This document shows, piece after piece, positions 45,612 through 48,600 of a stretch of 64,000 bases of DNA. The position numbers were made by a program, and so were the translations under genes. Source of the stretch: Hoplostethus atlanticus (lineage: Eukaryota > Chordata > Actinopteri > Trachichthyiformes > Trachichthyidae). Numbering within the stretch: the first letter of the stretch is position 1; each line of letters opens with the position of its first letter. The notes beneath the pieces were generated by a model. The model did no database searches and was not told the DNA's origin. It worked only from the letters and a program-made list of their open reading frames with translations. The DNA is taken from the NCBI GenBank assembly GCA_034670405.1, contig JAXDDX010000004.1, positions 6,060,001-6,124,000 of the forward strand, read 5' to 3'.

Positions 45612-48600
45612 CTGAGTAGAGAGAGCAACAACAAAGAAATAAGAGTTAAACACTGAACAAGTTAACAATTTAGCTGACACTCTGCAGGTAGAGGCTGGTG
45701 TCATGACACATGGCTGTTTTGGGGATTGAACCTTGGACCTTCTAGTTATGGGATGCTCTCTCTAACCACTACCCCACTCTAGCGGATCATGCTATCTATA
45801 CATGTACATGGGGAAAAAAAAAAAAGAGATGATGAGGCGAATGACGTAAATTCATTCTCTCTTGACGTTTACGAATTCACCACACGGGGGCGCCTAGACA
45901 CTAGCGCAACGTCACAGCTACAAAATGGACTACATGACACACAGCAGTGACTTATAATAACACAATGCTTTTCCTCCCATTTCGAGAGACAAGGGACATT
46001 TTTGGGGGATCGCGCGGGGGGCAGGTCTCTGTTATCAATGAATACATCACTTGCCTTGTGATGTGATGTAGAGAAAAAGCATCGTGGATTGAGCACAATA
46101 TCCCCTTTGCTCAGAGTAACAGACCCTGACGAAGCTAGCACGTCAGAGAACATTCGCTGTAGAGACATGACCCTCCGTCTTCCTAATGGTGTGGCTCTGG
46201 TGGGGTACACACAGCCCATCTCAAAATCATAAGATGCAGAGAGGGCGTGGGAGAACAGTTTTTACATGAGCCAGACTTGCCCCGGTGCATCGGATGTATT
46301 TATGAGGGAGTCAGAGGGCTTTTTAAGATCTGGGGGAGCGAGGCTGGGTAACACGGGTAGAGAGAGACAGAGCAGTATAGCTGTAGCTAGCTCCCACAAG
46401 CTGTACTGTAACCATATGACTCAGCCTGCCCCACTGGGCAACAGATGCCAGTGTGTATGCTAACGTTGACACCATCACAAGTATGTTGGACAATGGAATG
46501 TGCTAGCCTATGAATAGATTACTTGGATAAGGAGAGACACGGAGGTGAAATCTGGGAACTAAACAACGACTGAGCTGGTTTACAACGGCATTAGCCTTCA
46601 TTGTCACAGACTTAAAAAGAAAAAGCACTATCAGGCCGGCAGCAACAAACCAGCTACAGCGTGGACGTGGGAAATTAAATGTCACGTCTAATCCCTTTCG
46701 TATGTAATCCGTCGTTTCATTTGGTTACGTAGGCACAAGTAGAACCTTGAGTATCTGAACCGCCGGTGGATTTTCAAAAGCAAATGGTCGACGGAAATAA
46801 ACGGAGCGGGCATACCAGCAGGGGAGCTGACCACGCCGTTTACCGGACACTTTTCAAACATGGATCAAGCTGTTCTTTTCCTATTGTATTGTCAAGATAA
46901 TACCAGCCTGCCACTGCATGTGAGTGTATGTGTGTGTGTGTGTGTGTGTGAGAGAGAGAGAGAGAGAGAAAGTACACGTGCATCGCCACATGCTGCAGTG
47001 CAAATAAAGGGGGAGCATTGATTGAGAGACAGAGAGTGAGAGTGAGAGTGAGAGTGAGAGAGTGAGAGAGAGGAAACACAGAAAGGAGGAAGATGTGCTC
47101 TCACCTGTGTTCTGTGCCAGATAACAGATGCCCTGGAGTGGCCCAGTTTGTTTCGACAGGGCCCTTTGTCATAGTGGATCAGGAGAAAGTCATCCTGTCA
47201 CATGCACGCACACACACACACACACACACACACACACACACACACACACACACACACACACACACACACACACACACACACACACACACACACACACACA
47301 CACACACACACACACACACAGTAAAGATAATGCAGATAGAAAGATTGACCATTAGTTGTCTGAGAGGCAGCTGTTTGAAAACTGCTTTTAAATGACCTGC
47401 GTGGCCCAATCGTCTGTGCTTATACAATTAGGATTACATAAAGCACCGCAGCTCATATGGGTAAGCCTGACCCAAGCTCAGATAAAACTGTCATTTTCAC
47501 TTGTCTTGTAATGGATTGAATAGAAAAAAAACATTTTAAAAATGCATCTGATTCCTGCCTTATCAAGTCCAAGGTTATACTTCAATTTTCTGATAATGAA
47601 TGCTGTCACACGGAGAGCCAAGTGATACCTACATTAAACATTATCAGGCAGCGCGCAAATACAGCATTGAAATATTAACCTGCAGAGAGATATATGGCTG
47701 AGTAAAATGCATAATGTTGCTATTGCGGTGAACATCAAGGTACAGGGAAATTAGTAGTACAAGTACAACTCACATCCAGAGATTCCAGACAGTACCAGCA
47801 GAAGGCGTGTTTGCAGTTCTTGCACATCATCTGGGCGCAGCCCTCGTCCCTCTCGATGTAAACTTTACATTTAGGACAGCGCTTGATGGGTGCATCGTCC
47901 TCCTCATTCTTATAGAAAGCGCTGGGAAGCAGAGAGACAGTAAACTCAATGCATCTTCTTCTCTTCGGGTCATAAAATCAACTGCACATTCATTTTAGCA
48001 TCAAGTGTTGGAAATGAGACGGCGAGAACGCAGTAAACATTAAATCAACGGTTCGTGTGAAAAGGAAGTGCAAAGCTGTTATTGGTGCCAACATCTTGAA
48101 TAGCCTTGATTGAGGAGCTGGTATGAGACTCTTCTAAAAACCAATGGTCATTAAATAGCACTGAACTCCTCCCACACACACCTCCATCCCCTCTATGATT
48201 TTATTTATTTTTTATTTATTCCTTCACCCTCCCAGATTCTATTTCCCCTCCCGTTGGTGTCACTTTTTCTGTATCCAATTTCTCCTTTTCCAGCTGACTC
48301 CTCAAGGCTGGAGGCAAGGTAGCTGTCCTAGCCCATTCGTTTCTTGGCCAATTCTCCAAGTATTGACTGAACCGCGCCGGAGTGAATTACAGCTCATTCT
48401 GCACCACCCCCACCCCCCCAACACCTCCATTCATCTGACACCTGGCAGCCATCTTGAAACTAGAAAACAAGACTTCTCTGAATCTGCTTAGGAGGTAGGG
48501 AGAATATCAGATGCATCACTGTATGCTTAAAATGATTAATAGGTCCTTTTAACATCGCTCCATTGCCGTTTACATCCAGGAGACTGTTTTATGTCTGTCT

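What the first reader, a model, noticed from the sequence alone, without database searches (positions are those of the whole stretch)
47195..47360. A (UG)56 array replaces the normal 3' splice-site context of rnf144a exon 6
In transcript sense the intron ends with 56 perfect TG units, then 14 nt (CGTGCATGTGACAG), then exon 6. There is no adjacent polypyrimidine tract. The nearest branch-like CTAAT is at 47355-47351, about 158 nt from the exon, and no AG occurs between it and the acceptor, so a distant branch point with a long AG-free zone is possible. UG repeats are the known binding site of TDP-43 and CELF-type proteins, and the UG tract before CFTR exon 9 causes length-dependent skipping. 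The same logic here predicts that exon 6 inclusion varies with allele length.
Basis: partly seen in the sequence, partly recalled or inferred. Interest (0 to 1): 0.8.

Follow-up and report, generated by a model that had tools for sequence, protein, structure and literature searches.

The report
UG repeat stretching a splice site
In this probable fish genome a run of 56 TG repeats sits between the likely branch point and the end of an intron in the ubiquitin-ligase gene rnf144a, so the splicing machinery must probably reach at least 128 bases to find exon 6; this is unusual, testable and not unique in the genome.

Summary
On the minus strand, intron 5 of rnf144a (47773-47195, 579 nt) ends with 56 perfect TG units (47320-47209), then CGTGCATGTGACAG, then exon 6 (47194-47105, 90 nt, in frame). 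The acceptor scores below all 140 myosin acceptors that I modelled in the same genome, though three modelled kinesin TG-type acceptors score lower still.

The reading needs changing. The array does not so much replace the 3' splice-site signals as split them. There is no adenosine from -10 to -127, so an adenosine branch point must lie at least 128 nt away. The best candidate, CTAAT (A at 47352, -158), is followed by a 75% pyrimidine tract (47348-47321). Without the 112-nt array the distance would be 46 nt. This matches the layout of known distant-branch-point exons.

TG arrays near acceptors are common here: 12 of 100 sampled kinesin acceptors against 0 of 100 for CA. One kinesin intron has an even longer adenosine-free UG tract of 235 nt. 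The AC/GT bridging class is not met in intron 5. CFTR-like length-dependent skipping is possible but untested: no RNA data were available. A (CA)11 array in intron 6 could pair across exon 6.

The parts
47774..47921 (-). rnf144a coding exon 5 (RING2 region, ...CLESLD)
   Evidence: spliced alignment; Pfam IBR_1 at aa 185-220
47768..47773 (-). 5' splice site of intron 5, GTGAGT (U2-type)
47195..47773 (-). intron 5, 579 nt, no CA or AC run of 3 or more units
47360..47361 (-). last AG upstream of the real acceptor (CAG); the 165-nt AG-free zone begins here; scores 5.87 bits as an acceptor, its use would add 165 nt with an in-frame TGA
47351..47355 (-). CTAAT, best branch-point candidate; branch A 47352, 158 nt from exon 6
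   Evidence: sequence; function inferred
47321..47348 (-). displaced pyrimidine-rich tract (75% Y, 50% T); none of the 28-nt windows starting in the first 422 nt of the intron reaches it
47321..47325 (-). TTTAC, second branch-like motif; A 47322 is the nearest adenosine upstream of the array, 128 nt from exon 6
47209..47320 (-). perfect (TG)56 array in sense ((CA)56 on the + strand)
47195..47208 (-). 14-nt linker CGTGCATGTGACAG ending in the acceptor AG
47105..47194 (-). rnf144a coding exon 6, 90 nt, phase 0 on both sides, 30 aa
   Evidence: boundary conserved in L029 and L030
46929..46950 (-). (CA)11 in sense in intron 6, 154 nt after the exon 6 donor; predicted to pair fully with the UG array across exon 6
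45480..45611 (-). rnf144a last coding exon (exon 7) with the stop codon

Best explanation
A TG microsatellite expanded in intron 5 of rnf144a between the branch point with its pyrimidine tract and the acceptor AG. Exon 6 is therefore a distant-branch-point exon. The branch forms at CTAAT (A at 47352, -158) or at TTTAC (A at 47322, -128), U2AF and U2 snRNP assemble on CTAAT and the pyrimidine tract at 47348-47321, and the second step reaches across the AG-free UG tract to the first AG, which is the authentic acceptor. The UG tract is a tolerated spacer because it holds neither A nor AG, and it is a landing site for UG-binding proteins (TDP-43, CELF type) that may tune inclusion. Shown: gene model, geometry, absence of A and AG, acceptor weakness. 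Inferred: branch-point use, factor binding, any effect on inclusion.
For: No adenosine from -10 to -127 (A distances ...134, 128, 9, 4, 2). [quoted passage not shown] 158 minus the 112-nt array is 46 nt, an ordinary or nearly ordinary spacing. The exon-proximal 23 nt plus first exon base score below all 140 myosin acceptors. Two paralogues have normal exon 6 acceptors. A second intron with a similar plan: kinesin exon at G000:C156:936749, 324-nt intron with TCTAATCTAATCCAAG, then a 235-nt adenosine-free UG tract up to the acceptor AG; AG-free zone 236 nt; in-frame join VLGVSE|LAMCDLAGS.
Against: No branch point was mapped and no RNA was seen. Branching at a non-adenosine inside the array cannot be excluded. 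Eight other kinesin TG-acceptors for which I have the figure have an adenosine 24-59 nt from the exon, so their UG tracts may work as ordinary tract substitutes, and rnf144a could do so too with help from exon definition. The assembled repeat length may be wrong or only one allele.
Confidence: 0.6

Rival explanations
1. CFTR-exon-9-like repression: UG-binding proteins, above all TDP-43, coat the tract, hinder use of the acceptor, and exon 6 is skipped more in longer alleles.
For: TDP-43 binds (UG)15 with Kd about 5 nM and needs at least six repeats for high affinity (PMC3985631, passages); UG at CFTR exon 9 promotes skipping (PMC12171016, passages). In human data exons with AG-free zones over 100 nt were cassette exons in 68 of 235 cases against 47 expected (PMC1431707, passages). 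Skipping would be silent for the frame: 30 aa lost, last exon kept.
Against: The layout differs from CFTR: no U tract between UG and AG. 12 of 100 sampled kinesin acceptors here have nearby TG arrays, so such acceptors seem widely tolerated. Exon 6 is identical to recalled human RNF144A, so heavy skipping would be costly. No RNA evidence.
Confidence: 0.25
2. The UG tract itself serves as the polypyrimidine-tract substitute (GU-type acceptor), recognised directly by U2AF or a UG-binding activator, with splicing constitutive.
For: TG arrays reach to or near the acceptor in 12 of 100 kinesin and 1 of 140 myosin acceptors and in exon 7 of the paralogue, (TG)18CCCTGCAG; CA arrays in 0 of 100. Human pUGs are reported as the only dinucleotide repeat of 12 or more units enriched near splice sites (PMC12276007, passages).
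Against: It still needs a branch adenosine, and none exists within 127 nt except at -9, -4 and -2, which are too close. The displaced CTAAT plus pyrimidine tract makes a substitute unnecessary.
Confidence: 0.2
3. Cross-exon pairing: (UG)56 upstream of exon 6 pairs with (CA)11 downstream in intron 6, looping exon 6 out and favouring skipping or a circular exon 6.
For: All 22 nt of the CA array pair with the UG array in the minimum-energy fold of 47420-46880, expected pairs 21.97 of 22, duplex -41.3 kcal/mol. Only 2.9% of 176-nt windows on this strand of the window hold a (CA)11.
Against: 2.9% is weak evidence after a look at several features; the CA arm takes only 22 of the 112 array bases and lies 154 nt past the donor; TDP-43 or splicing factors would compete. 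No circular or skipped RNA seen.
Confidence: 0.1
4. AC/GT bridging intron, U2AF2-independent (Lin et al. 2016; content recalled, citation seen in reference lists).
For: GT array at the 3' end. An intron of that form exists in this genome: L071, 158 nt, begins gtaa(CA)19 and ends (TG)8TAG.
Against: Intron 5 has no CA or AC run of three or more units. Of the 6 other TG-acceptor introns examined whole only that 1 has a CA run of five or more units.
Confidence: 0.03
5. Assembly artefact: the array length is wrong.
For: Perfect dinucleotide arrays are hard to assemble (general knowledge); no reads are available.
Against: Arrays of at least 56 units are spanned at many places in this assembly (6 in the first 2.38 Mb of contig C1). 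The flanks fit the gene model. Even a moderately shorter array leaves an adenosine-free gap.
Confidence: 0.1

Closest known systems
Distant-branch-point exons with large AG exclusion zones (Gooding et al. 2006, PMC1431707, passages)
   Same: AG-free zone over 100 nt, branch motif and pyrimidine tract at its 5' end, first AG downstream is the acceptor
   Different: The spacer is almost entirely one perfect UG microsatellite, adenosine-free as well as AG-free, hence length-variable in principle
CFTR exon 9 (UG)m(U)n acceptor repressed by TDP-43 (PMC12171016, passages)
   Same: Long UG tract upstream of an acceptor with a weak local pyrimidine tract
   Different: Order of elements: here pyrimidine tract then UG then AG; in CFTR UG then U tract then AG. 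Array about four to five times longer than the (TG)11-12 named in those passages. No splicing data
AC/GT bridging introns, U2AF2-independent (Lin et al. 2016, recalled)
   Same: GT array at the 3' end of a probable fish intron
   Different: No AC array in intron 5; the nearest CA partner downstream is in intron 6
GU-tract acceptor of human apoA-II intron 2 (recalled; the TDP-43 paper on this gene, Mercado et al. 2005, carries an expression of concern, PMC9976871, listing)
   Same: Alternating G and U in place of a pyrimidine tract next to the AG
   Different: Much longer here, and a separate branch point plus pyrimidine tract is present upstream
Intronic pUG quadruplex sequences (PMC12276007, abstract and passages; PMC12697283, passages)
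   Same: At least 12 UG repeats near a splice site; room for four 12-repeat folds
   Different: No folding measured here; the listings showed no paper that places a pUG fold between branch point and AG

Membership tests
Distant-branch-point exon | AG-free zone of 100 nt or more upstream of the acceptor | tested here: met
   165 nt; maximum 118 in 140 myosin acceptors, and 110 in 35 kinesin acceptors, (236 nt in the kinesin intron)
Distant-branch-point exon | Branch motif and pyrimidine tract near the 5' end of that zone | tested here: met
   CTAAT with A 47352, 75% Y tract 47348-47321
Distant-branch-point exon | No usable branch adenosine in the normal range | tested here: met
   no A from -10 to -127
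Distant-branch-point exon | Branch point mapped experimentally | not testable with these tools
   no RNA data
CFTR-type TDP-43-repressed exon | UG tract upstream of the acceptor long enough for TDP-43 | tested here: met
   56 units; at least 6 needed, PMC3985631, passages
CFTR-type TDP-43-repressed exon | U tract between UG tract and AG | tested here: not met
   linker is CGTGCATGTGACAG
CFTR-type TDP-43-repressed exon | Length-dependent skipping | not testable with these tools
   no RNA-seq or genotypes
AC/GT bridging intron | GT array at the 3' end | tested here: met
AC/GT bridging intron | AC array at the 5' end of the same intron | tested here: not met
   no CA or AC run of 3 or more units in intron 5
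AC/GT bridging intron | U2AF2-independent splicing | not testable with these tools
pUG-fold sequence | 12 or more uninterrupted UG repeats | tested here: met
   56; requirement from PMC12276007, abstract
pUG-fold sequence | Potassium-dependent quadruplex | not testable with these tools
   the folding runs made here do not model it; no experiment possible

The most novel reading that the evidence does not exclude
The UG tract is a folding spacer. Its 56 repeats could form up to four 12-repeat pUG quadruplexes, whose 5' and 3' ends lie close together, so that a 158-nt branch-to-acceptor gap is compacted to ordinary reach; TDP-43, whose binding and the pUG fold exclude each other, would open the spacer and weaken exon 6. 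Exon 6 would then be a TDP-43-controlled, repeat-length-controlled in-frame switch of the RNF144A ligase, and the kinesin intron at C156 with its 235-nt UG tract would be a second member of a class of UG-spacer introns in this genome.
Probability: 0.08. Interest if true: 0.75.

Novelty: new variant of a known kind. Interest (0 to 1): 0.42.

Why it matters
It gives natural introns in which the branch-to-acceptor distance is set by a microsatellite, so repeat-length alleles become a dose series for how far the spliceosome can reach and whether UG-binding proteins or UG folds change that reach. If exon 6 is skipped in some alleles, the product stays in frame and keeps the last exon, which holds the transmembrane segment (recalled), but loses 30 residues that follow the RING2 core; from recalled knowledge of RBR ligases the HYDKGPC segment supplies late RING2 zinc ligands, so the product would probably be a membrane-bound, ligase-dead form. 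The wider point, that about one in eight sampled kinesin acceptors of this genome lies next to a TG array while CA arrays were not found there, fits what is reported for human and, from recall, zebrafish introns.

Tried and rejected
AC/GT bridging inside intron 5: rejected, no CA partner. Use of the upstream CAG (47361-47360) as the main acceptor: it scores better than the real one (5.87 bits), but it would add 165 nt with an in-frame TGA; possible as an error product only. Reading the array as coding: the alternative-acceptor reading meets a stop for all ten array sizes tried, 50-59 units. A simple claim that the array is rare by length: rejected, arrays of 56 or more units are common. A claim that the acceptor score is unique: rejected, three kinesin TG-acceptors score lower. 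Enrichment of branch motifs just 5' of UG arrays: seen by eye in several cases, not claimed, numbers too small.

Dead ends and dropped data: one search used a wrong-strand myosin query and is discarded for the myosin loci (its L029 and L030 rows stand); redid it. One search covered the paralogue files under wrong names and gave nothing; redid it. One search gave 155 distinct acceptors; one search kept 140 after dropping loci L033-L036 and L054 and alignments with fewer than 6 of 10 matching positions on a side. The 140 come from 20 loci, many of them tandem muscle myosins, so they are not independent. The kinesin sample is part of 149 matches: 25 loci plus 70 short segments chosen by me from the list. 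One search merged two different kinesin acceptors with identical 30-nt ends; one search corrected this (100 = 35 spliced-aligned, after dropping 4 doubtful calls by eye, plus 65 short segments, 5 duplicates dropped). Of the 12 TG cases two are less sure as acceptors (L065, L130). For the 65 segments the window is 50 nt before to 14 nt after the start of the domain match, so acceptor positions there are approximate. The TG-against-control comparison uses a stretch roughly 100-170 nt upstream (2 of 100). The bit-score test was made only with the myosin matrix; one hand-typed string (L152) was out of register and its score is void. One search stopped with an error after its first result; one search finished it.

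Full report
Observation. The window lies at G000:C4:6060001-6124000 of a 632.8-Mb genome, probably a fish by gene content and paralogues (inference). On the minus strand it holds rnf144a. A protein-to-genome spliced alignment that I wrote, with only GT-AG allowed and a small donor bonus, recovers seven coding exons of 135, 105, 61, 217, 148, 90 and 132 nt and a 295-residue protein close to my recalled human RNF144A. Intron 5 is 579 nt, donor GTGAGT, and ends with (TG)56, CGTGCATGTGACAG, exon 6. The finding is accurate in its coordinates and counts.

Is exon 6 placed correctly? Its 30 residues are identical to the recalled human sequence, and the boundary is the same in two paralogues in this genome, C129 (L029) and C5 (L030). 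Those two exon 6 acceptors are ordinary: tgtctcctctctccccag at the 61st percentile and gcattgtgcttgcag at the 24th of the myosin reference set.

How odd is it? I modelled 140 acceptors in 20 myosin loci of this genome. The exon 6 acceptor scores -0.49 bits; the 140 range from 1.31 to 15.5. The other five intron acceptors of rnf144a lie between the 49th and 80th percentile. The AG-free zone is 165 nt (maximum 118 of 140). The nearest adenosine 15 nt or more from the exon is 128 nt away (maximum 41 of 140 myosin; 52 of 35 kinesin). The myosin set is dominated by tandem genes with short introns, so these are reference values rather than probabilities.

How common is a TG array at an acceptor? In 100 kinesin acceptors, part of 149 matches (35 spliced-aligned, 65 short segments), 12 have six or more TG units nearby, the longest 21 units; 0 have six or more CA units; a control stretch roughly 100-170 nt upstream has TG in 2 and CA in 1 (TG against CA near the acceptor, Fisher P = 3e-4; TG near against control, P = 0.01). 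In the myosin set it is 1 of 140, so the two families differ widely. The paralogue on C129 has (TG)18CCCTGCAG at exon 7. So TG-array acceptors are a regular feature of at least some genes of this genome. Published statements agree: human pUGs of 12 or more repeats are said to be the only dinucleotide repeat of that length enriched near splice sites (PMC12276007, passages); from recall, Lin et al. 2016 report AC/GT introns in about 10% of zebrafish genes (paper not held). An AC/GT intron is present here, gtaa(CA)19...(TG)8TAG in L071, but of the 6 TG-acceptor introns outside this gene copy that I read whole it is the only one with the CA partner, and rnf144a intron 5 has none.

What the sequence says about mechanism. 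A branch point is normally an adenosine some 18-45 nt from the acceptor (general knowledge). Here the intron has adenosines at -2, -4, -9 and then none until -128. So unless a non-adenosine is used, the branch is at least 128 nt away. Two yUnAy motifs lie in the AG-free zone: CTAAT (A at -158) and TTTAC (A at -128). After CTAAT comes TCAATCTTTCTATCTGCATTATCTTTAC (75% pyrimidine); none of the 28-nt windows starting in the first 422 nt of the intron reaches that value. If the 112-nt array is set aside, CTAAT would be 46 nt from exon 6. I read this as an ordinary branch point, pyrimidine tract and AG that were pulled apart when a TG repeat grew between the tract and the AG. This is the layout of distant-branch-point exons, in which branch point and tract lie toward the 5' end of an AG-free zone and the first AG downstream is used (PMC1431707, passages).

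A second example. Following the kinesin segment with no adenosine (L117), I fetched 271 more bases. The intron at G000:C156 is 324 nt, donor GTAAGA, and ends TCTAATCTAATCCAAG, then 235 nt of adenosine-free imperfect UG running up to the acceptor AG; the exon starting LAMCDLAGS continues VLGVSE of the previous exon in frame. Its AG-free zone is 236 nt; an AG lies about 6 nt after the nearer CTAAT branch A, but AGs within about 12-15 nt of the branch can be bypassed (PMC1431707, passages). Among the 240 surveyed acceptors (100 kinesin, 140 myosin) this is the only one with an adenosine-free stretch of 100 nt or more in the stretches read; the next longest is 69 nt. So rnf144a exon 6 has company, and the plan is probably recurrent, at well under 1% of acceptors.

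What could act on the tract. TDP-43 binds UG repeats very tightly (Kd about 5 nM for (UG)15, PMC3985631, passages; picomolar in a 2025 preprint, PMC12697283, passages). Repeats of 12 or more can form pUG quadruplexes, with ends close together, and 24 or more form compact double folds (PMC12276007, abstract and passages); TDP-43 binding and the fold exclude each other (PMC12697283, start of abstract, passages). In fission yeast, RNA secondary structures between branch point and a distant acceptor are proposed to bridge the gap (PMC9508853, abstract). Putting these together gives the compaction reading in the novel case; no step of it was tested here, and the measured in-vitro folding is slow (half-life 13 min or more, abstract of PMC12276007), which speaks against it unless folding is faster during transcription.

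Cross-exon pairing. Intron 6 has (CA)11 in sense at 46950-46929. In the fold of 47420-46880 all 22 nt pair with the UG array, duplex energy -41.3 kcal/mol; most other array bases pair with other flanking sequence in that model and 24 stay free. A (CA)11 falls in a 176-nt stretch of this strand in 2.9% of positions, so the coincidence is modest. Such pairing would loop out exon 6.

Consequences. Skipping exon 6 keeps the frame, loses 30 residues and retains the last exon. The best Pfam IBR_1 stretch is residues 185-220, ending just before exon 6 (residues 223-252), with 9 of its 47 positions unmatched at the end. That HYDKGPC in exon 6 completes the RING2 zinc sites is recalled; the search of solved structures (20 distinct sequences at E up to 0.01) aligned no further than query residue 58, about seven residues into exon 6, in a parkin entry, and listed no entry named RNF144A.

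Limits. No RNA, no reads and no related fish were available: the tool gives this genome no relatives and, by their descriptions, the genome collections are prokaryotic. Lin et al. 2016 and Mercado et al. 2005 could not be read; the latter carries an expression of concern (PMC9976871, listing). That a microsatellite-spaced distant branch point is unreported rests only on the listings of searches in an open-licence library.

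Noticed in passing
window 51952-51989 and 53023-53109 (minus strand): Two more acceptors of rnf144a lie next to simple repeats: exon 3 has a (TC)n CAG acceptor, exon 2 a UG-rich stretch followed by a normal pyrimidine tract.
   Followed up: partly
L071, intron 1614-1772 of the reverse complement (C277): A 158-nt kinesin intron begins gtaa(CA)19 and ends (TG)8TAG: the form described for AC/GT bridging introns of zebrafish (recalled).
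   Followed up: partly
G000:C156:936330-936780 (L156, L117): Kinesin intron whose last 235 nt before the acceptor AG are adenosine-free UG-type sequence, with CTAATCTAAT just upstream: a second, longer UG-spacer intron.
   Followed up: partly
L029 (C129) near 4497 and near 2377: Exon 7 acceptor of the rnf144a paralogue is (TG)18CCCTGCAG, and its exon 5 acceptor is a long TC-rich array.
   Followed up: partly
G000:C129:747906-749939 (L031): A complete myosin head match in one open frame of 1971 aa: an intronless myosin heavy chain gene or retrocopy.
   Followed up: no
window 49876-49994: A 30-copy TCTA tetranucleotide array in intron 3 of rnf144a.
   Followed up: no
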